Positions 41,127 through 51,131 of a DNA stretch of 64,000 nt are shown in pieces; the stretch's first letter is position 1, and every line of letters starts with the position of its first letter. The position numbers and the translations under genes are program-made. Below the pieces are notes generated by a model. That model did no database searches. It saw nothing but the letters and a program-made list of their open reading frames with translations, and was not told the DNA's origin. Source of the DNA: Melanopsichium pennsylvanicum (Eukaryota; Basidiomycota; Ustilaginomycetes; Ustilaginales); NCBI GenBank assembly GCA_900208305.1, contig OAPG01000006.1, forward strand, positions 310,001 to 374,000, given 5' to 3'.

Positions 41127-43430
41127 TTAGACATCCAACTGTGGCTTGACCTGGCTAGGCGCAGCACTGGTCGCAGCCTCTTCGAGCGGATCCAAAGGGG
41201 GCGTTGGTGGATGATCGTCAAGATCACTTCTGAGCGGCTTTGGCCTATGAGTGTCAACAGCCTCAATAGGCAGCTGGAATCGTTTCTCGTCGCAACCATA
41301 AGCTTTGGGTGTAAGTTGGATGACCGTGTGGAGGGGAATCTTGATGTATGGCAGATCTTCCTGAGACAATGCGTGAAAGTAAGCGTACAAACATCGAATG
41401 ATAGCTTGATGTCCAATGATCAAGATATTCTCCTGACGTTCCAGCTCCATAATGATGGGTTCCAATCGAACGACAACATCACGGTAAGATTCGCCGCCTC
41501 GGTATCGATAGTTAAACTTGTCATCATCTCGATTGGCATAGTCCTCCGGATAATACTTTTCGATCTCTTCGTATGTCATCGCGTCACAAACACCCGCATC
41601 CAGCTCGTCCAAACTCTTCCAAGCAAGCTTTGGATACGGTAACTCGCTCGCCGTCTGTCCGGTTCTCCTGAGCGTGCTATGCCATACCGTCAAAGGTGCA
41701 TCCCCAATATTGTCCTTGATCAATTGCGGCAGAGCTTTGGCATACATCCATCCCCGAGGGCTCAGATCGCTGTCGCCTCCAATCTTGCCTTCCACGTTGT
41801 ACTGTGACTCTCCATGGCGAGAAAAGAAGATGTTTCTCGGCGTCAGATGCAGATTCATAAGGTAGAACGCAATCCTCGACTCCAAGTACCCTTGAATTCT
41901 GTTGATCGTCACGCTCTTGCCCACATCGGTGACCTTTACGTAGGAGTAATCAGATTCTGAGCCGTCGTTGTTAAGCGGCTCATAGGTGTCCTCGTAATGC
42001 TTGATGCGAGCGAGGAAATCGCGCTTGGCATCTTCAGGAGTCATGCCCGCGTAATCGGGATCTCCACTGGACACCTTGACCGCAATATTCTTCTCAATCA
42101 CCTCGGGGTCCGTACAGATACTCTCCAAGAACACGAGTTTGAGATCCGGCTCTTTGGCAATTCTGTCGGCGATCTCTCGTCTTCTTGCCGTGGTGCTATT
42201 CGTTGCGTCGTGGATGCCAACATTGCCACCTCTTTTGAGCCATCCGATCAATTGCTCGAGGCACTCCTCCGCCATCTGTGAGCGTAGTTTGTAAGCAGAA
42301 GGATTGCTGGGATCGAAAAATGATGCAGTGTGGTCTTCTTTGATTCCGGACTGGTTGTACTTGGCACGAGCGAGAGCACGACGCAATTGACCAACATTGA
42401 AGACCTTAACATCGTATTCGAGCCAACGGAGGTATTTCAAGACTCGATTGGCAACATACGATTTGCCTCGGGCCGGGAGACCAACCATGCATACCACGAT
42501 CTTGGCCCCACTGTAGTCCGGCCGGGCTCCTGCAGCGCCAAGATTGGGGGTGGAAAGGCCTGTGCGAATGCCGTGCCCAAGTCCAAGAGCAGTCCCAAGA
42601 CCGGACGGATGGTAGGACGAAGGACCGCCTTCTCCTACTTCTGGTGCGTCCTTGAGAATTCGACCGCGTCCATTGTCGTGTGCGTGTGTTGGGCTCATTG
42701 GACCATGATGATGGCTGTAATGTTGTTGGTGTTGAGATTGAGACTGCGCCTGCGCCTGCGCCTGCGTCTGGTGGAAGGAGTTGCTCAGAGAGCCTCCCAC
42801 AGGCAGAACGTAGCCTTGTTGGTTGACAGAGTCCGGACCTTCGAACGGAGTTCCTGGAACACTATTGCCGCGGCTTCCGGCAACACTACCACTCCTGGTG
42901 CTGGTGCTGAAAGTATTGGTCATGGCCAGGTTGGGTCCTGCGGCAGCAGCCAAACTGCTTGATACCAACTCTGGATGGTCCCTCAGCAGCGCCTGCAGTC
43001 CATCACTGCTACTAGCCAAATTTGAAGAGGCTACAGCTACGTCAAAAGCCTCCCTCTGACTTGCTGCGGGGAAAGGTGCTGGTCGAGACTGACTGAAGTG
43101 CCTGGGGGAAGCAGAAGAGAATCCTGGAGTGGAGCCGGAGAGCTTGCGGCTGGCGGAACGGACTGAGCCGCTGCGTGATATCGATGTCTGGTTAGGGTTG
43201 GATTCTTTTTGAGCTTGATCAGCCATTCGTTGAGCTAGCTGTTGGGCCTGGATCGCTGAATAGCGGCCAGGAGAAGCTGTACCAGGTCCCACGCCCGGTC
43301 CGCCGGAGAGATGGCGGTGGTGGATGATTGCGTGAGGGATGACCGGGGAGCTGCCGGCGCTATCAATAGCGCAGGCGTCAGCATCTTGGGTTTCAGCACC
43401 GTCTTGGATATCGATGGATTTCTGTGACAT
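41127..43430 (-). CDS. 6-phosphofructo-2-kinase / fructose-2,6-bisphosphatase
   Basis: From the first ATG at 43430 the protein has 767 residues. The first 300 residues are Ser/Gln/Gly-rich with an Ala-Gln repeat encoded at 42751-42775. The kinase domain begins near 310 with the Walker A segment VGLPARGKSYVANRVL, then FNVGQLRR, FFDPSN and HDATNSTTARR. The histidine-phosphatase domain follows near 530, with the catalytic RHGESQYN, ELDAGVCDAMTYEEIEKYYP and the second histidine in IIGHQAIIRC. Both active sites look intact, so the enzyme should make and break fructose-2,6-bisphosphate, the cytosolic switch between glycolysis and gluconeogenesis. This differs from yeast, where PFK26 and FBP26 have each lost one activity. 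The upstream in-frame open stretch (to 43709) has no ATG and is read as leader. Confidence 0.95.
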   Translation of the reverse strand: MSQKSIDIQDGAETQDADACAIDSAGSSPVIPHAIIHHRHLSGGPGVGPGTASPGRYSAIQAQQLAQRMADQAQKESNPNQTSISRSGSVRSASRKLSGSTPGFSSASPRHFSQSRPAPFPAASQREAFDVAVASSNLASSSDGLQALLRDHPELVSSSLAAAAGPNLAMTNTFSTSTRSGSVAGSRGNSVPGTPFEGPDSVNQQGYVLPVGGSLSNSFHQTQAQAQAQSQSQHQQHYSHHHGPMSPTHAHDNGRGRILKDAPEVGEGGPSSYHPSGLGTALGLGHGIRTGLSTPNLGAAGARPDYSGAKIVVCMVGLPARGKSYVANRVLKYLRWLEYDVKVFNVGQLRRALARAKYNQSGIKEDHTASFFDPSNPSAYKLRSQMAEECLEQLIGWLKRGGNVGIHDATNSTTARRREIADRIAKEPDLKLVFLESICTDPEVIEKNIAVKVSSGDPDYAGMTPEDAKRDFLARIKHYEDTYEPLNNDGSESDYSYVKVTDVGKSVTINRIQGYLESRIAFYLMNLHLTPRNIFFSRHGESQYNVEGKIGGDSDLSPRGWMYAKALPQLIKDNIGDAPLTVWHSTLRRTGQTASELPYPKLAWKSLDELDAGVCDAMTYEEIEKYYPEDYANRDDDKFNYRYRGGESYRDVVVRLEPIIMELERQENILIIGHQAIIRCLYAYFHALSQEDLPYIKIPLHTVIQLTPKAYGCDEKRFQLPIEAVDTHRPKPLRSDLDDHPPTPPLDPLEEAATSAAPSQVKPQLDV

Positions 43431-44156
43431 TGTTGCGGCTGTCTGAAGCGCGAATTGATATCGTCGATTCGAGCAAGTATAGTCGTACGAAGGGATGAGC
43501 AGAGAGCTCGATTGGGCTGATCGATGGAACGTCGCAGATACGTGTTCACACCGGTCAACTGCGCTGCTTCTATGTAGACGACTAGATCGAAGAAGGGAAG
43601 GAAGCGCGGGACGTTTGTAGGCGGAGATGTGTTCGTCGGACACGGGCAATGATCGAGGTAGGCGAGGACCGGACCGGAGATGAGCGAGCGAGCGAGCGAG
43701 TGCTGACAATGCGGGGCGAAACTGACTGAATCGTACTCTGTGCTATGTAACTTAGTCGGCCTTCGTTCCAAATTGCAGGTTCTGACAGAGCTCAACAACT
43801 GTGTTTGCCTGCCTGTATCTGTGCTGTATTTCATGTTTATTTGTAGGTGAACAACTGAAGTTGCGCTTTTGTGCCGCTCGCCCGGATTTCACTGGGCTGC
43901 ACCGTGCGTGCGAAGTCGGTAATTTCCGACCATTGCCGCCTTGGAGCCTTACCAGCTCTAACAGAAAAAGCTTTTTTTTTGTCAGCCTTACATGTGCAGA
44001 GGCTGAAAAGTTGAATAGGTGGAGTAAATTAATTTAAATCACTGTACTTTACTGTAGACCCTTGTGGAAAGCTTCTTATCGAAAATGCTGGAATCCTTTT
44101 CCCTCTTATCCCATCTGCCATATCAAGACCGTCTCAGCCTTCGTCCTTCGCCCAAC
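43431..44156. other. Divergent promoter PFK-2 / NudC
   Basis: These 726 bp serve two divergent genes. They include a (GAGC)n run and one TACTGTA motif (44050-44056) about 100 bp before the NudC start. A second possible NudC ATG lies at 44085. Confidence 0.5.
43682..43700 (+). repeat. (GAGC)n tetranucleotide repeat
   Basis: Nearly five GAGC units lie in the leader/promoter of the PFK-2/FBPase-2 gene. Confidence 0.9.
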
Positions 44157-44954: not shown

Positions 44955-47777
44955 TCAGCGAGAGACACCAACGGCGCCCGCAGGAGAACTAGCTTGCTGA
45001 TCTCGTTGTCCTCGCTGAGAAGCGCCTACACGATCCTTCACGGCCTTGTCCAGTTCCACTGCCTTCTTCCACATGTCGACGGTCAGGCTCTTCTCCCCAT
45101 ACGACAAGGCCAGCAACCTCACAATCGCCATTCTCCTCAACAGATCCTCTTGACTCAGCGCACCTTTCTGAGCACTCGCTTCTCCGTGGGATTCCTTCAT
45201 TTCCTCTTGTTCCCTCTTTCTCTCGCCCACGAATTCCTTCTGAATGTGCTCGCTGACGCTCTCGGGAATTTCAAACGCTTTTGCTGTAGCGAGGCTCCTT
45301 GCATGCGCCAAAGCCTTCCTCCAGGCCTGCAGCTTTGCCTCCTCAACCCGAGGAAGCGAGGCAGAATAAAGATCAGTGTTGCCATCGGCCTGTTGCAGAG
45401 GGCACTGCATGTCAAATGGCAAGAAAGACTTCCCTTGACTCAGAATGACAGCGTTGAGATCGGTGTCAAACTCAAATTCTGAGTAAGGAAACGCATATGG
45501 AAGCTTATGCGACTCGAGCACCGAAGAGAGCGCTTTGATGTTTCGAATGCCCGAGTCTTTGAGCTGTCCCTCACCCATTAAGCCCTCGTTTACCACCATC
45601 ATAGTCCCGTTTACTAATTGGAGTCGACCCGCTTCCAGCCCAGTCCCTTCACCAGCACTGCGTGGGTACAGAGGCTTGCGATCGTCGTTGAGCGTGTTGA
45701 GGTCCATCGAAATATCCACTACTGCCGGAAGGAGCTGATTGAGGACTTGCAACAATTTGGGCTGGACCGAGACAGACGAGGAGGAGGCGAAGTTGGAGAT
45801 GTTCAGAGTAAGAGCGCCGAGACAGAGGTCTGCTCGGCGAACGTGAATCCGGGCGATGGTGGCGAGCAAGACGAGCTCGGCAGCGATCTTGTCTCCGCCG
45901 AGTGCGCCAGCAATGTAGTCGACAAGCGCTTCCCGTTCAGACGGCTGCGAGAGAATGCTTGTGACTGCATCAGAAGAACCGACCGAATCTAGTTCGACCG
46001 AAGAAGCGTAGACAGCGTGAACGCAAGGCACCTGAACAGGCTCCGATGAGCCCGCAATTGACCCAGTCTCTTGCCACTCAGCTTGGGGTAGACCGGCAGT
46101 GTCCATGATACCGACTACTTCGATCAACTCTGTCGTCTTGAACCTTTCCGCCGCGTCAAGATCGTACAGCTTGACCAGCGCACCCACGTGTGGCAGCTCT
46201 GGACGCGGAGACTTGGCAACATACGCTTTGGGCAGATCGGACGAACCAGCACCATCCGAGTTGCCTTCGCCTGCCTGAACCCGAGAAGCTCCCTTGCGTA
46301 GCTCGTCGAACGCAGCCTCAGGCCCCACTTCGAGCTCTCGCTTCATTCCGTTCATCGCCTCCTCTCTCGTTCTTGGCCTCCTTCCGAAACAGTCCGTACC
46401 AACTCGAACATTATCACTCCCAGCCATTGTGGCCACGTCCATATCAGCCGACATGCCCATACTCAACTCCAACCCTCCCGCCTGGTCTTTCCCATTCAAC
46501 AACTCTGCATAGGCTTCGTTATGCGCCTCCTTCTTGGCATCTTCGCTCTCCCTCAGCAGCTTCACAAGGTTAATTCGGGTGTGTATGAGTCTCTCAAAAT
46601 CGGGGTTGGCAGAGACGATCTCGTCACTAGTCTTCGGTGCATCTGCATCAGCAGAGGAGCTGTTGTCGGCGGCGCCGATTGTCATAACGCCCTGCAAGCG
46701 AAGGTGAGGACATTTGGTGATGACGTGAACCGCAAGCTTGAGTAGCTCGCTTCCCTCGGCCTGCTCTGCATCCGTCGTAAGAATAGGTGGGAGACCAGAC
46801 TTGGCGTCCTCTCCGCTGGTGTTGACCTGAAGATACACTCTAAGCGGTTCGTCACGCTTGACGGCATCAGGAGAGCTCAAAGCCTTCTGCAGGACATTCG
46901 CAGCTTTAACAGAGTCCAGCGTCTCGAGCAAGTACAGGTTCGGAATGGACGCGAGGAGCTTGCCCTTGTTGCTTTGCAGGCCGCCGACAAAGTGCCATCG
47001 GATCTCTCGAGGGAGTACTTTGGCCTTGTCTACCAACTCTTGGACGTAGTTTTCGCCAAAGTGCAGCTGGTTGACTTGCTTGTACGCAGCGAGGATGGCG
47101 GATGGCGGATGAAGCTTTGAGATGGCTACTAGGCGGGGCTCCTTGCCAGCTGAGCCGATCTCTTTGCCCTTTTCAACTGCCCGGCGAATACGTGTGCGAA
47201 CTTCTTCGATCTTCCGGGGCGATTGTGGCTCTTCGATCGACATGTTCGAGGTCGCTCCAATTAAACCGTCGATCGAAGGCTCAGAGACGATGGACTCGCG
47301 ATGAGATTTAGCTGCCCATTCGGTTTGACCAGGAACAGAGACGGCGTACATGACGGTTCGTTCTGCCAAGTCCTGGTTGTTTAGCTCCTCGTGGTCGACG
47401 CGATTTGAGGACTCGGTCGAAAATTGGAGGCTAGCTTCGCCGCCGAACATGCCGGTGATGGTGCGATCCGCGTGCTGATGTTTCGCAAGGAAAACTTCGG
47501 TGCCGAGACCCGTGTCTTGGATCATGGCTCGAAAGCGGACCAACCGGTGCGTAGCTGATGCATTGCTGTTGGACACCGGGAGTAGCGAGTTCAATTTGCC
47601 GGATGAAAGTGTTGGTATCTTTGCGCTGGCATCGGGAGAGGAGAAGAGTTGGCGAAAGTGGCCCTCTACCAGCTTTGTAATGTTGGAAGGAGATTTGTCC
47701 AAGGCTTCCTTGTAGATGTGCTGGACGACGTCGAGCGGCGTATTGAGAGCCTTGGAGAAGTCCGTATCGGGAATCAT
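44955..47777 (-). CDS. mcb1: MCM-binding protein with an inserted PLP-homeostasis (YggS/PLPBP) domain
   Basis: The ATG at 47777 gives 940 residues (MIPDTDFSKALNTPLDVVQ matches the MCMBP start); an in-frame ATG at 47918 would add 47 basic residues. Residues about 1-160 are MCMBP N-terminal (LVRFRAMIQDTGLGTEVFL; TVMYAVSVPGQTEW). Nucleotides 47216-46368 encode a full PLPBP barrel: PLP lysine in LVAISKLHPP, HFGENYVQELVDKA, WHFVGGLQSNKGK, VNTSGEDAKSGL, LQGVMTIG and LSMGMSADMD...VRVGTDCFGRRP. The rest resumes MCMBP (HVGALVKLYD, VPCVHAVYA, LQLVNGTMMVVNEGLMGEGQ, GIRNIKALSSVL, FLPFDMQCPLQ). MCMBP binds MCM helicase subunits in the nucleus; PLPBP buffers pyridoxal phosphate. The frame is uninterrupted. 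Whether one fused protein, two starts or a nested gene is used is unknown. Confidence 0.88.
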   Translation of the reverse strand: MIPDTDFSKALNTPLDVVQHIYKEALDKSPSNITKLVEGHFRQLFSSPDASAKIPTLSSGKLNSLLPVSNSNASATHRLVRFRAMIQDTGLGTEVFLAKHQHADRTITGMFGGEASLQFSTESSNRVDHEELNNQDLAERTVMYAVSVPGQTEWAAKSHRESIVSEPSIDGLIGATSNMSIEEPQSPRKIEEVRTRIRRAVEKGKEIGSAGKEPRLVAISKLHPPSAILAAYKQVNQLHFGENYVQELVDKAKVLPREIRWHFVGGLQSNKGKLLASIPNLYLLETLDSVKAANVLQKALSSPDAVKRDEPLRVYLQVNTSGEDAKSGLPPILTTDAEQAEGSELLKLAVHVITKCPHLRLQGVMTIGAADNSSSADADAPKTSDEIVSANPDFERLIHTRINLVKLLRESEDAKKEAHNEAYAELLNGKDQAGGLELSMGMSADMDVATMAGSDNVRVGTDCFGRRPRTREEAMNGMKRELEVGPEAAFDELRKGASRVQAGEGNSDGAGSSDLPKAYVAKSPRPELPHVGALVKLYDLDAAERFKTTELIEVVGIMDTAGLPQAEWQETGSIAGSSEPVQVPCVHAVYASSVELDSVGSSDAVTSILSQPSEREALVDYIAGALGGDKIAAELVLLATIARIHVRRADLCLGALTLNISNFASSSSVSVQPKLLQVLNQLLPAVVDISMDLNTLNDDRKPLYPRSAGEGTGLEAGRLQLVNGTMMVVNEGLMGEGQLKDSGIRNIKALSSVLESHKLPYAFPYSEFEFDTDLNAVILSQGKSFLPFDMQCPLQQADGNTDLYSASLPRVEEAKLQAWRKALAHARSLATAKAFEIPESVSEHIQKEFVGERKREQEEMKESHGEASAQKGALSQEDLLRRMAIVRLLALSYGEKSLTVDMWKKAVELDKAVKDRVGASQRGQRDQQASSPAGAVGVSR

Positions 47778-48278
47778 CTTTGTGAACGTTCGTACTGGAA
47801 AGGATGTACTTGGGCTGTTCCTGATTCGCTGCCCGTGTGTATAGATCGAAATTGGTCTAGTCAAGATGAGGTGAGTTTGGATGAAGGGTGTGTAGAGAGG
47901 ACGAAGAGGATTCTTCATCCCTCTGCTGCGCAGTGTGACTTGTCAGAGCTAGGAGAGCCGTTGAGCCGTTGAGCCAGTGATGTTGGTAGTCCTTGATAAT
48001 ACAGGTGACACTAGAGGAGATTGGAAGAGAGTGTGCGCACGGCAGCAAGTTGGTTACCAAAACAGTAAATCTCAGACTGTGGTTGTATAGAGTAGTATAG
48101 TAAATTTACGTTGACAGAAATGGTGGAGAACTTTGCTGACAATTGATTTGTCATTGCAGGCATCAAGTTAGCCGAAGCGGAGCACGTACTGTGGACCCTG
48201 GACTGCATTGACCATGTACATGTCCAACTCTCACATTAACCTTAACCGTAACGCCACACCCATCAACACATCGCCAAC
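47778..48278. other. Divergent promoter, MCMBP fusion / adaptin-like gene
   Basis: These roughly 500 bp lie between two divergent starts. They include the 47-codon possible N-terminal extension of the fusion gene (47778-47918). No other element is recognised. Confidence 0.5.
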
Positions 48279-51131
48279 ATGTCACAGTCTGGGTTGTCGT
48301 TCACCTTGCTGGAGAGTGGCACTTCACGATTGCACTTCAGACTGGCCAAAGCGCTTGAGGATGCAGTCTCGCCGGATCAGCAAGACCTTATTATCATCGA
48401 CACAATTGCCCAGATACGCGCGCAGCTGGCTTCACGCTCTTCTTCTAACAACGTGACCAAGCTTACCTCTGCATTACTCACTTTGCTACACTGTTGTTAC
48501 CATTATCCTGTTTCCTCGGGATCATTTCCAAGTTCACGCACCGCAATCGACGTCGGCTTTGCACTCGTACCGACGCTGCAGCTTCTGGGTTTAGCTACGG
48601 AATGGAAGCATCTCCTTCTAGCCTACCAGCTCTTGCCATTTCTGCTTCCTTCTAAAGCACGCAGTGATCATGCTGTTGGTGGCATCAGTGAAAAACCTGG
48701 TAGGAGTGAAGACTTGATCAGCTCCGAAACCCAGACATTAGCATCTGCATCAACCTCGTCACCGCTTTCTTCATCAATCGTTCGTGGCCGGTCCTCTGGC
48801 CTTCGCCCATCATCTCCTTCATATCAGGGCGAAGTTTCGAGAGCCTCATCCTTAGCTTCACCAAATGTCGACGAAACGTCCTCGTTGCTTCTCCTGAACA
48901 CATTCCGATCGAATCTGACTGCTGCTACTGCTGCTGCTGCTACTCAACCTCGTCAAGTAACGCGTCGGGAACAGTCTTCGAGATCGCGATCTCGCTCTCC
49001 ATCCGTCTCACGTCCTTCCACCAAAGCAACGGATATTTTCAGTCTTGATCCTTCGTCTGTTCGAGTCCGCTTTCGAGCTTTGGCATCACTCAGATCTCTG
49101 GCAACAGGTACACCGCACGGTCCCGCAGTGTTACCGTCCCTCGCTTCTACGCTGGTTGCTCTTACTCGACATTCGGATGACACGATACGATCGACAACGT
49201 TGAAAGCCATGCTTGCGTGTGCTTCAGTCAACATTCAGAACCAGCCAGATAGGGATGGTCAAAACGAAATGCTGGACGCTGCCCTTACGATCGTTCGCCT
49301 CACATTGGCCTCAACGTATGCGTTCTCTCCAGGATCAGGCATCGGAGAGCAGCAGGGTATGATCTTGGCGGAAATGGACAGGCGTGTCGATTCCAACCCA
49401 AGCGTGCTTCGTGCATGCATCAAGCTCAGCAATCACGCTCGTGAGAAAGGACTCATCACAGAGCAGGAAGCGGCATGCCATGCCATCGAGGCGCTGCAAG
49501 CGAGCCGATGGGCTCCAATGCACCTTGAATTGCCAGCACTACAGCAGCATCGCGTTGTTTCAACAGTGGTAGACCTTACGAAAGGTATCCGAGAACGCAT
49601 GGCGGCCCGGCAGAGAACGTCTTTGCAGGCCGACCACGACTACTATGGAATCTACGCCCCATGGCTTGTCGAAGCTTGCTTGTCGTCTTTGGCCACCTCC
49701 GTGAAGAGCATGCAGAAAGAGAACGCGTCCCGAATGCAAATGGATGAGAGCACTGAGAAGGAGTTGCTGAAGGTGGTACTTCGCATCTACAACACGGCAT
49801 CCCAAGAAAAGGCGTCAGCATTGGCCCTTTGCGTTTCTGCTGCTCACTGCATCGGTGCGCTTTACACGAGATCCGAGAACATCACACAAGCAAGTCCTCG
49901 ATCCTCGCGTCTTCACACTGACGGAGAATTGGTAGCATTATGGTCCGTTCTGTCCACGCATATCGACTCACAGCTGCGCAGCTCAAACCCAAATCGCAAA
50001 ACATCCGGCCTTGTCTTGCTCGAGACGCTGCTACCCGTCGGATGGGCCCAGGCGACAGCGCATCCTGATCCATCTGAGGGTGACGGAAAGCATCACACTG
50101 AGTCCACCTCGCCGCTCAAGATTTCTGAGATGCAGATGGGACATCTCATGTCGCTCCTGACCGATCCAGATTCTTCTATCCGCACAAGAATACTGACATT
50201 ACTTAACAAAGTGGATAGTGGACTGCCGGCGCTGCTTCGCACGCAGCTTCAGGCAACCTTGGATGCCGAGATCCAGCATTCCGGTCCGCCGGTAGAATCC
50301 ATGGCCTATGTCGCACAGCGTCTGATCGAGGTGGCGTTGTTCGCAGTCACGTCCTCTCCTGCTGGGCAGACGGTAAGCGGGGCAGCGGGAGCAATGTCAG
50401 CTCTGCAACAGGCAATCGACAGCGGAGTCAAACTTGGCTTGTTCGACCCATCCGAGCGCAAATTGAATTTCCAGCAAGAGGCATGGGCGAAATCGATTCT
50501 CAGCAGCGTCAGCAACTTGTCTATCGATAATCGACTTGAATTGCTTCAGCGCCTGACGGAAAATGTGGAATCGAATGGACTGAGCTTGATTTGTGACCTT
50601 ATCTGCGATCTCACTGTCCGAGATATTCGGCAGTCAGAAGAGGCTATCGACCGATTCGTTGGATGGGTGTCAGGCCAAAGGCTGGGTGACGATGGCTTCG
50701 TCGGTCTCCTTCGAAAAGGCTCAGAGCAGAAAAATGCCTCGCATGCACGACAGACCGTACTCGGAGCGACTGCCCGAACTATTTCTCTTGTCGTTCAGCT
50801 TGTGGGCCCTTCACAGGCATCAGCTGACTTGGTAAAATGCTTTACTAGCTTAGATCCTCTTCTGGCGAACATTGTCGAGAGCGAACAGAGGACGGCTCTA
50901 CGTGCTCAGGCAAGCAATCTACAGCTCATCTGTCACACGCTGCAGCACCTCGATCCCTTATCGGAGAGCACCTTGGCTTTGAAAATCGGCTCGCTAGCAG
51001 CTCCGTTCCAGAATACTGAGGATGCCGCAAGGCGTCTATTGGAGTTCCACCTGGATGACCTCACGTCAAAAGAAGCCGACGATGTAAGGAGCGTCTCCAG
51101 TAAGTTTGGCGTGCTTGATTTACTCGCTTGA
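48279..51131 (+). CDS. Armadillo/HEAT-type solenoid protein, possibly adaptin-like
   Basis: The ATG at 48279 opens 950 residues of mostly helical sequence. After a low-complexity Ser/Ala/Thr insert (about 140-250) there are repeated helix pairs such as VRVRFRALASLRSLATGT, HSDDTIRSTTLKAMLACAS and NRKTSGLVLLETLLPVGWA followed by HLMSLLTDPDSSIRTRILTLL. The last pair resembles the adaptin trunk rule 'LxxLxDPDxxIRxxxLxLL', so a vesicle-coat or armadillo scaffold role is possible, but I cannot place it in a named family. The ORF stop at 51131 may not be the real end: a GTAAGT donor at 51100 and a CTAAT...GCGCAG acceptor ending at 51153 define a 54-nt intron. Splicing would replace the last ten or so residues and extend the protein to 51377, overlapping the next gene's start. 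Confidence 0.75.
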   Translation: MSQSGLSFTLLESGTSRLHFRLAKALEDAVSPDQQDLIIIDTIAQIRAQLASRSSSNNVTKLTSALLTLLHCCYHYPVSSGSFPSSRTAIDVGFALVPTLQLLGLATEWKHLLLAYQLLPFLLPSKARSDHAVGGISEKPGRSEDLISSETQTLASASTSSPLSSSIVRGRSSGLRPSSPSYQGEVSRASSLASPNVDETSSLLLLNTFRSNLTAATAAAATQPRQVTRREQSSRSRSRSPSVSRPSTKATDIFSLDPSSVRVRFRALASLRSLATGTPHGPAVLPSLASTLVALTRHSDDTIRSTTLKAMLACASVNIQNQPDRDGQNEMLDAALTIVRLTLASTYAFSPGSGIGEQQGMILAEMDRRVDSNPSVLRACIKLSNHAREKGLITEQEAACHAIEALQASRWAPMHLELPALQQHRVVSTVVDLTKGIRERMAARQRTSLQADHDYYGIYAPWLVEACLSSLATSVKSMQKENASRMQMDESTEKELLKVVLRIYNTASQEKASALALCVSAAHCIGALYTRSENITQASPRSSRLHTDGELVALWSVLSTHIDSQLRSSNPNRKTSGLVLLETLLPVGWAQATAHPDPSEGDGKHHTESTSPLKISEMQMGHLMSLLTDPDSSIRTRILTLLNKVDSGLPALLRTQLQATLDAEIQHSGPPVESMAYVAQRLIEVALFAVTSSPAGQTVSGAAGAMSALQQAIDSGVKLGLFDPSERKLNFQQEAWAKSILSSVSNLSIDNRLELLQRLTENVESNGLSLICDLICDLTVRDIRQSEEAIDRFVGWVSGQRLGDDGFVGLLRKGSEQKNASHARQTVLGATARTISLVVQLVGPSQASADLVKCFTSLDPLLANIVESEQRTALRAQASNLQLICHTLQHLDPLSESTLALKIGSLAAPFQNTEDAARRLLEFHLDDLTSKEADDVRSVSSKFGVLDLLA

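What the first reader, a model, noticed from the sequence alone, without database searches (positions are those of the whole stretch)
44955..47777. A whole PLP-homeostasis protein nested inside an MCM-binding protein
One uninterrupted minus-strand frame reads MCMBP N-terminal part, then a complete YggS/PLPBP barrel with its PLP lysine (VAISKLHPP) and all signature motifs, then MCMBP C-terminal part. The insertion lies in the linker that is variable between MCMBP homologues, so both proteins could still fold. MCMBP controls MCM2-7 helicase assembly; PLPBP manages the vitamin B6 cofactor. I know of no described link between them. The joint could tie replication to cofactor state, be a neutral domain insertion of an intronless copy, or hide two gene products. 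The family calls are strong; the meaning is inference.
Basis: partly seen in the sequence, partly recalled or inferred. Interest (0 to 1): 0.88.

Follow-up and report, generated by a model that had tools for sequence, protein, structure and literature searches.

The report
Vitamin B6 protein inside replication protein
In a smut fungus the only copy found of a vitamin B6 carrier protein lies inside a DNA-replication chaperone as one continuous reading frame, and related fungi carry the same B6 protein inside or behind three other, unrelated proteins, so the gene seems to have been captured repeatedly in one branch of the fungal tree.

Summary
One 987-codon minus-strand ORF (44955-47918) reads MCMBP N-part, complete YggS/PLPBP domain, MCMBP C-part. 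It is not a local oddity: 17 database proteins, two of them incomplete, have the same order. The window's own 21.1-Mb genome showed no other YggS or MCMBP, so this is not a spare copy. Unfused MCMBP and unfused YggS both exist in Tilletiaria.

The larger finding lies outside the coordinates. In the same subphylum YggS is also inside ARMT1/DUF89 (Malassezia), inside twinfilin before its tail (Microstromatales), and behind MTHFR (Tilletia). Each class is one clade, apart from two 'partial' records inside the twinfilin class; the simplest account is at least four independent captures. The window's genome holds the other three hosts without YggS.

Best reading: a genuine two-function protein in which PLPBP is an autonomous passenger in a flexible linker. 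Four unrelated hosts argue against a specific replication-B6 link. An acid-free N-terminal extension hints at a mitochondrial form; support is weak to moderate. No RNA, peptide or relative DNA was available.

The parts
44955..47918 (-). whole MCMBP-YggS-MCMBP open reading frame, 987 codons plus stop
   Evidence: same architecture in 17 database proteins
47778..47918 (-). 47-codon N-terminal extension, no Asp/Glu, 7 Arg/Lys; possible mitochondrial presequence used only from the upstream ATG
   Evidence: also acid-free in P0005, P0016, P0017 as they stand, and in P0015 if cut at an inner Met; background 42 of 358 stretches; helical moment not unusual here
47223..47777 (-). MCMBP N-terminal part from Met48, ending in the variable linker (linker 1 about 47223-47303)
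46323..47222 (-). complete YggS/PLPBP domain (residues 233-532)
   Evidence: structure model
47115..47117 (-). Lys268 in SKLHPP, the PLP lysine of the family (motif in 18 of 18 fused sequences, the window among them)
   Evidence: role of the lysine from family knowledge
46230..46322 (-). second linker, fast-evolving (0.37 mean pairwise identity over residues 537-563 in 14 rows); residues 543 onward have pLDDT under 50
44958..46229 (-). MCMBP C-terminal part (MCM-like domain without a Walker A motif)

Best explanation
The locus makes one polypeptide with two independent folding units. A complete PLPBP (YggS) barrel was inserted in frame, apparently with little or no loss of host sequence, into the flexible linker between the N-terminal part and the C-terminal MCM-like part of MCMBP in an ancestor of the Ustilaginomycetes. 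It replaced the free-standing YggS gene, so both ancestral functions, MCM2-7 assembly and PLP homeostasis, now depend on one gene. The PLPBP part most likely works as a passenger that binds and buffers PLP by itself, tolerated because its barrel folds alone and the flanking linkers are flexible; the partner is not what matters. The upstream in-frame ATG may yield a minor form with a mitochondrial presequence, while initiation at Met48 yields the nuclear/cytosolic form. Shown: the ORF, its conservation, single copy in the held genome, distribution, other hosts in relatives. Inferred: one translated product, autonomous PLP binding, replacement of the free gene in every fused species, dual targeting.
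For: ORF and domains. Only YggS and only MCMBP found in the genome (in the YggS part of each fused query hit only this locus). Seventeen database proteins with the same architecture, including Thecaphora (Urocystidales) and Violaceomyces (Violaceomycetales); clade support 98/86 for the 18 YggS parts. In the 14 closest rows (window, P0002-P0014) mean pairwise identity is 0.87 for YggS, 0.76 and 0.81 for the MCMBP parts, 0.54 and 0.37 for the linkers: the functional parts are constrained, the linkers drift. Five of seven YggS motifs are in 18 of 18 fused sequences, the other two in 17 of 18. Unfused MCMBP in Tilletiaria and Ceraceosorus lacks YggS. Model: YggS region mostly pLDDT 73-93; best PDB matches YBL036C and YggS, then MCM helicases. 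Partner-independence: other hosts in relatives. Splicing: no GTRNGN or GTRNGY site in linker 1 (residues 206-232) and no GTRNGY in residues 191-563; a frame-keeping GT-AG pair between the linkers would be at least 972 nt. Dual targeting: acid-free extensions; human PLPHP is found in cytosol and mitochondria (PMC10463200, passages).
Against: No transcript or peptide evidence; no DNA of relatives, so frame continuity there rests on annotated proteins. The presequence is unproven: 14 of 18 fused records (P0001-P0018, the window's own P0001 among them) start at the second Met; the window's extension and two others have no unusual helical moment against shuffles; acid-free stretches are not rare in this window (42 of 358); P0015 counts only if cut at an inner Met. 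Part of the N-terminal half of the model (model residues 46-148, ORF residues 93-195) has pLDDT under 50. No clear nuclear localisation signal was seen in a crude scan. One strong donor-like site, GTATGT at 46224, lies just behind YggS; it cannot remove YggS, but a truncated message ending after YggS is not excluded.
Confidence: 0.72

Rival explanations
1. The fusion couples DNA replication to vitamin B6 status: PLP occupancy of the inserted domain changes MCMBP's handling of MCM subunits, or the complex delivers PLP to nuclear PLP enzymes such as SHMT that feed thymidylate synthesis.
For: The fusion is kept from Violaceomyces and Thecaphora to Ustilago, and both parts are conserved. One of the alternative hosts, MTHFR in Tilletia, is a folate enzyme next to SHMT in the pathway (pathway link recalled).
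Against: Three other lineages keep the same domain with twinfilin, ARMT1 or MTHFR, and Tilletiaria keeps MCMBP and YggS apart (P0025, P0053). A specific tie would not predict this.
Confidence: 0.1
2. Two gene products: YggS is removed from the MCMBP message by splicing, or is made alone or in a truncated form by an internal promoter, internal ATG (Met226), alternative splicing behind it, or proteolysis of the linkers.
For: An in-frame Met226 with A at -3 lies just before the domain. A GTATGT site at 46224 lies just behind it. Much of linker 2 has pLDDT under 50, so cleavage is possible.
Against: No GTRNGY starts in residues 191-563 (observed 0, synonymous shuffles mean 2.94, P 0.03; three looser GTRNGN sites occur, all within or at the end of YggS) and none in linker 1. 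The nearest donor-like site upstream, GTACGC at residue 190, lies in conserved host sequence. A frame-keeping GT-AG pair between the linkers would be at least 972 nt. Met226 is not kept in any of the 17 other rows (P0006 has a Met two residues on), and the codon that makes GTATGT (Val567) is not kept either.
Confidence: 0.13
3. Assembly or gene-model artefact joining two loci.
For: Annotated fusions of YggS to other proteins occur elsewhere: 31 of 86 large YggS proteins lie outside the four classes described, with various partners; Testicularia P0015 has an opsin model joined in front.
Against: In the window the frame is continuous DNA without a stop; the nested order, with host sequence on both sides, does not arise from running two neighbouring genes together; it recurs in 17 database proteins.
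Confidence: 0.02

Closest known systems
PLPBP / YggS / PROSC family (yeast YBL036C, E. coli YggS, human PLPHP)
   Same: Motifs, PLP lysine and barrel fold; best PDB match YBL036C
   Different: Described as single-domain proteins (PMC9605639, abstract and passages); here the domain is internal to another protein
MCMBP (Mcb1, ETG1)
   Same: Pieces on both sides of YggS match Pfam MCM_bind; C-part resembles MCM helicases and lacks Walker A, as stated for MCMBP in PMC9018068 (passages)
   Different: A barrel of about 300 residues sits in its linker; unfused orthologues P0025 and P0030 are 585 and 575 aa
YggS inside ARMT1/DUF89 in Malassezia
   Same: Complete YggS domain nested in an unrelated host with host sequence on both sides; ARMT1 profile ends at 185 before YggS in P0036 and resumes at 186 after it in P0039
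   Different: Different host; a separate clade within the YggS tree
YggS inside twinfilin in Microstromatales and behind MTHFR in Tilletia
   Same: Same YggS clade; the twinfilin class has a host-like tail GF-x-KP after YggS in 11 of 11 records
   Different: Positions differ: before the tail of twinfilin; at the C-terminus of MTHFR

Membership tests
PLPBP/YggS (COG0325) | sequence family with PLP lysine and signature motifs | tested here: met
PLPBP/YggS (COG0325) | TIM-barrel (fold type III) structure | tested here: met
   predicted model; Foldseek TM to 1ct5 0.83 by target length
PLPBP/YggS (COG0325) | single-domain protein | tested here: not met
   internal to a 987-codon MCMBP frame; single-domain stated in PMC9605639. 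The domain belongs to the family; the whole protein is another architecture
PLPBP/YggS (COG0325) | binds PLP and affects B6 pools | not testable with these tools
   no biochemical data
MCMBP | MCM_bind profile over both parts | tested here: met
   296.1 bits; profile 1-112 and 132-576
MCMBP | MCM-like domain without Walker A | tested here: met
   MCM chains among Foldseek matches, TM about 0.3-0.5 by target length; no G-x4-GK[ST] in 16 of 16 full-length fused sequences
MCMBP | binds MCM subunits and assists hexamer assembly | not testable with these tools
   known from human cells (PMC9018068, passages)
MCMBP | nuclear localisation signal | tested here: inconclusive
   crude scan for runs of three Lys/Arg finds only RKR at 900 in the window
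Intein-like self-splicing insert | protein-splicing domain | tested here: not met
   only two Pfam families match the ORF, neither an intein

The most novel reading that the evidence does not exclude
PLPBP is a serially captured gene in Ustilaginomycotina: one intact YggS domain was moved at least four times into unrelated host genes, three times into their interior, replacing the free gene each time, by a shared insertion route (for example a retrocopy, or a gene nested in an intron that lost its stop), and was kept because the host supplies expression and compartment signals for PLPBP.
Probability: 0.35. Interest if true: 0.8.

Novelty: new variant of a known kind. Interest (0 to 1): 0.66.

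Why it matters
A vitamin B6 protein described as single-domain in all kingdoms turns out to be nested in or joined to four unrelated host proteins within one fungal subphylum. This gives a natural series of domain insertions for asking how an inserted barrel is tolerated, how a free gene is replaced by an embedded one, and whether PLPBP works without any partner. In smuts it would also mean that a mutant of the replication factor MCMBP is at the same time a B6 mutant, so phenotypes must be read with care.

Tried and rejected
Splicing out of the YggS part: no consensus donor in linker 1. One search had cut the region at residue 565 and so missed a GTATGT site that straddles the boundary at 46224; one search is the corrected count. 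Chance or artefact: rejected by 17 database proteins with the nested order. Spare copy: rejected, single copy found. Horizontal transfer of YggS: not needed, since all 62 rows of the four fusion classes and the free or partial Ustilaginomycotina-like genes (many from unnamed sources) form one clade (100/98) against 18 other fungal rows, rooted on those 18 (80 of 81 extracted domains used, the truncated P0047 was dropped; two long-branch outgroup rows, P0043 and P0153, meet and are unsure). Intein: no such Pfam domain. Amphipathic helix as proof of a presequence: not unusual in 3 of 5 sequences. Literature: eight searches aimed at the fusion or its hosts and two on side questions; judged by titles and abstract starts, none listed a paper on the fusion. 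Most subscription papers are not in that library. The primary paper on the human PLPHP interactome could not be read (not held).
Full report
WHAT IS THERE. The minus strand of 44955-47918 is one open frame of 987 codons. Pfam finds MCM_bind in two stretches (296.1 bits in all, cut-off 25.6) and Ala_racemase_N, the family that matches YggS, at residues 259-515 (28.9 bits, cut-off 24.1); the genome search places the MCM_bind pieces on either side of it. The middle part is closest in the PDB to yeast YBL036C and then E. coli YggS. The motifs SKLHPP, HFGENYVQE, WHFVGGLQSNK, QVNTSGE and MTIG are present in 18 of 18 fused sequences, the window among them; LSMGMSAD and GSDNVRVGTDCFG in 17 of 18. The finding's end coordinate, 47777, is the second in-frame ATG; the frame reaches an upstream ATG at 47918.

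COPY NUMBER. The held genome of 21.1 Mb in 61 contigs shows one place for the whole protein, one for Ala_racemase_N, and MCM_bind only as the two pieces of this ORF. Searches with three YggS fusions from other fungi hit YggS only at this locus. These searches score best candidates in six frames without regard to introns, so a second copy broken by many introns is unlikely but not excluded.

DISTRIBUTION OF THE MCMBP FUSION. One search lists 17 proteins besides the window's own P0001 that match both families. Named sources are Ustilago trichophora, U. loliicola, Kalmanozyma brasiliensis, Sporisorium graminicola, S. scitamineum, S. reilianum, Pseudozyma hubeiensis (two records), Testicularia cyperi, Thecaphora frezii and Violaceomyces palustris; the others are unnamed. 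Thecaphora belongs to Urocystidales and Violaceomyces to Violaceomycetales; that Ustilago and kin are Ustilaginales is recalled. P0017 and P0018 are incomplete at the C-terminus. Source names already call several of them 'Pyridoxal phosphate homeosta...' and one 'Mini-chromosome maintenance complex-binding protein', so the records exist, but the paper searches listed no description (see Tried and rejected). MCMBP without YggS is found in Tilletiaria (P0025, 585 aa) and Ceraceosorus guamensis (P0030, 575 aa); BLASTP of P0030 against the Thecaphora fusion matches both host halves (1-178 to 56-242, 186-546 to 599-995) and skips YggS.

INSERTION POINT. In the alignment the host linker ends near EPQSP (window residues 230-234) and resumes near KAYVAKSP (residue 564). 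Ceraceosorus has recognisable counterparts of both sides close together, so the domain looks inserted rather than exchanged for host sequence. This reading of a variable linker is by eye.

CONSTRAINT. Mean pairwise identity in the 14 closest rows (window, P0002-P0014): YggS (residues 233-530) 0.87, MCMBP N-part (48-205) 0.76, C-part (564-960) 0.81, linker 1 (206-232) 0.54, linker 2 (537-563) 0.37; with Testicularia and Thecaphora added (16 rows): 0.84, 0.70, 0.75, 0.45, 0.32. Both proteins are constrained while the linkers drift, as expected for a translated two-function chain. Codon-level tests were not possible without DNA of relatives.

STRUCTURE. The AlphaFold model from Met48 (23 sequences) has mean pLDDT 65. 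In model numbering (ORF residue minus 47) the YggS region is mostly 73-93, with one inner block at 53 and its end near 65; most of the C-part is 70-92, and residues 46-148 and 496-598 are under 50; the latter covers most of linker 2 and the start of the C-part. Foldseek's best PDB matches are YBL036C (TM 0.83 by target length), E. coli YggS, and MCM helicase chains (TM about 0.3-0.5). The Malassezia model P0036 has mean pLDDT 66.4 and was not searched.

THE WIDER PATTERN. A search using only the YggS part, with candidates of 543-1727 aa, lists 86 proteins: 18 with MCMBP (one is the window's own), 22 with ARMT1-like PF01937, 11 with Cofilin_ADF, 4 with MTHFR, and 31 others with various partners. 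Where sources of the first four classes are named they belong to Malassezia (ARMT1), Sympodiomycopsis, Parajaminaea and Jaminaea (ADF), Tilletia (MTHFR) and the genera above; Malassezia, Jaminaea and Tilletia were confirmed as Ustilaginomycotina. In Malassezia the ARMT1 profile stops at position 185 before YggS in P0036 and starts at 186 after it in P0039. Of the 22 ARMT1 records, 18 showed by pattern both the YggS lysine motif and the later host motif; in three (P0175, P0179, P0180) that host motif pattern was not found but another later one was; in one (P0187) the YggS pattern was not found. The ADF host is twinfilin: the window genome's unfused relative (L021) matches Twinfilin-1 in the PDB and has two ADF stretches. 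In the two fused ADF proteins scanned, P0020 and P0032, Pfam sees only the first ADF domain, though P0020 and P0031 align with the smut twinfilin through its second one. The Microstromatales-type proteins have a twinfilin-like tail (for example GFAKPKRPG; smut GFSRPKKAG) after YggS in 11 of 11 records, so YggS sits before the tail, inside the host; the BLAST match of this short tail is weak (E 0.14 and 0.24), so this rests on the shared motif. In Tilletia YggS is at the C-terminus of MTHFR.

RECIPROCAL EMPTY SITES. The window's genome holds ARMT1 (C15), twinfilin (C10) and MTHFR (C21) without YggS. The smut ARMT1 frame runs on where Malassezia carries YggS: P0036 residues 4-277 match smut residues 31-321 and residues 564-607 match 302-345. 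Free YggS genes are listed for Tilletiaria (P0053), Exobasidium (P0054) and Ceraceosorus bombacis (P0069) and for other basidiomycetes (best 120 of 6749 shown).

TREE. Eighty YggS domains (81 extracted, truncated P0047 dropped) give one clade of 62 rows (100/98) holding all four classes and 19 free or partial genes, many of them from unnamed sources. Inside it the MCMBP class (18 rows, 98/86), the ARMT1 class (10 rows: 7 of the 22 and 3 shorter ones; 100/99) and the MTHFR class (4 rows, 100/100) are each one clade. The ADF class (11 rows) forms a clade (100/98) together with two records named 'partial' (P0056, P0070), probably cut-out models of the same fusion. The other free genes fall in three lineages; the order of the main branches is not resolved. 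The simplest account is a free ancestral gene and at least four independent captures, three of them interior.

POSSIBLE MITOCHONDRIAL FORM. The 47 residues before Met48 contain no Asp or Glu and 7 Arg/Lys. The extensions of P0005, P0016 and P0017, as they stand, also have none and 5-9 Arg/Lys; P0015, whose record runs on into an opsin, has none if counted from an inner Met (29 residues, 7 Arg/Lys) and one in its last 60 residues. Cautions: 42 of 358 Met-started 47-residue stretches in short frames of the window are also acid-free; helical moments are not unusual in three of five (the window's among them); and 14 of the 18 records P0001-P0018 start at the second Met. Two twinfilin fusions (P0019, P0034, one acid each) and some free YggS proteins also begin with Arg-containing, acid-poor stretches; these were picked by eye. 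Human PLPHP occurs in cytosol and mitochondria, and yeast lacking YBL036C is impaired on carbon sources that need mitochondria (PMC10463200, passages). The upstream ATG has G at -3 and the second ATG A at -3, which would suit leaky scanning. This is inference.

SPLICING. No GTRNGY starts in residues 191-563 (synonymous shuffles mean 2.94, P 0.03); three looser GTRNGN sites do, at residues 486, 507 and 531, too late to remove YggS. The nearest upstream site is GTACGC at residue 190, within conserved host sequence. A GTATGT at 46224, behind YggS, is a good donor by consensus but depends on Val567, absent in the 17 other rows. Any frame-keeping GT-AG pair between the linkers spans at least 972 nt.

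MECHANISM. I commit to a two-function protein in which PLPBP is an autonomous passenger (0.72). Specific coupling of replication and B6 is disfavoured by the variety of hosts (0.1). Separate products cannot be excluded without RNA or peptides (0.13). [quoted passage not shown] If that is no coincidence, at least the twinfilin capture may reflect a real interaction.

LITERATURE SEEN. PMC9605639: abstract, passages and one section. PMC10463200, PMC9018068 and PMC13114784: passages. Others: search listings only. PMC13114784 reports that inserted domains tend to have close termini and to fold independently; closeness of termini in YggS was not measured here.

Noticed in passing
window 44958-44966 (C-terminus): All 16 full-length MCMBP-YggS rows end in -SR (14 in VSR, one ISR, one SSR) although the residues before it vary; a conserved C-terminal motif of unknown role.
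   Followed up: no
P0189, P0191-P0194: Five ascomycete proteins of 671-892 aa (Pyrenophora, Stagonosporopsis, Stemphylium, Phaeosphaeriaceae, Plenodomus) carry YggS with its lysine 226-227 residues from the C-terminus; possibly another clade-wide YggS fusion outside Ustilaginomycotina.
   Followed up: partly
P0188, P0190, P0044: Rhizoctonia/Ceratobasidium records join YggS to C2H2 zinc fingers; real fusion or neighbouring-gene models, not resolved.
   Followed up: no
P0015 residues 1-400: Testicularia record has an opsin (Bac_rhodopsin) model joined in front of the MCMBP-YggS protein, probably a gene-model run-on.
   Followed up: no
PMC9605639 section 4.3; P0019-P0024, P0031-P0035: Human PLPHP co-precipitates F-actin capping complex subunits; in Microstromatales YggS is inside twinfilin, a capping-protein partner (recalled).
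   Followed up: partly
G000 C15/C4 and C21/C17: The window's genome has two places matching ARMT1 and two matching MTHFR; the YggS part of those queries matched at none of them.
   Followed up: partly
window 41130-43709 (-) and 48279-51131 (+): Neighbours: a 6-phosphofructo-2-kinase/phosphatase gene and a divergently transcribed frame with a weak HEAT-like match below cut-off.
   Followed up: no
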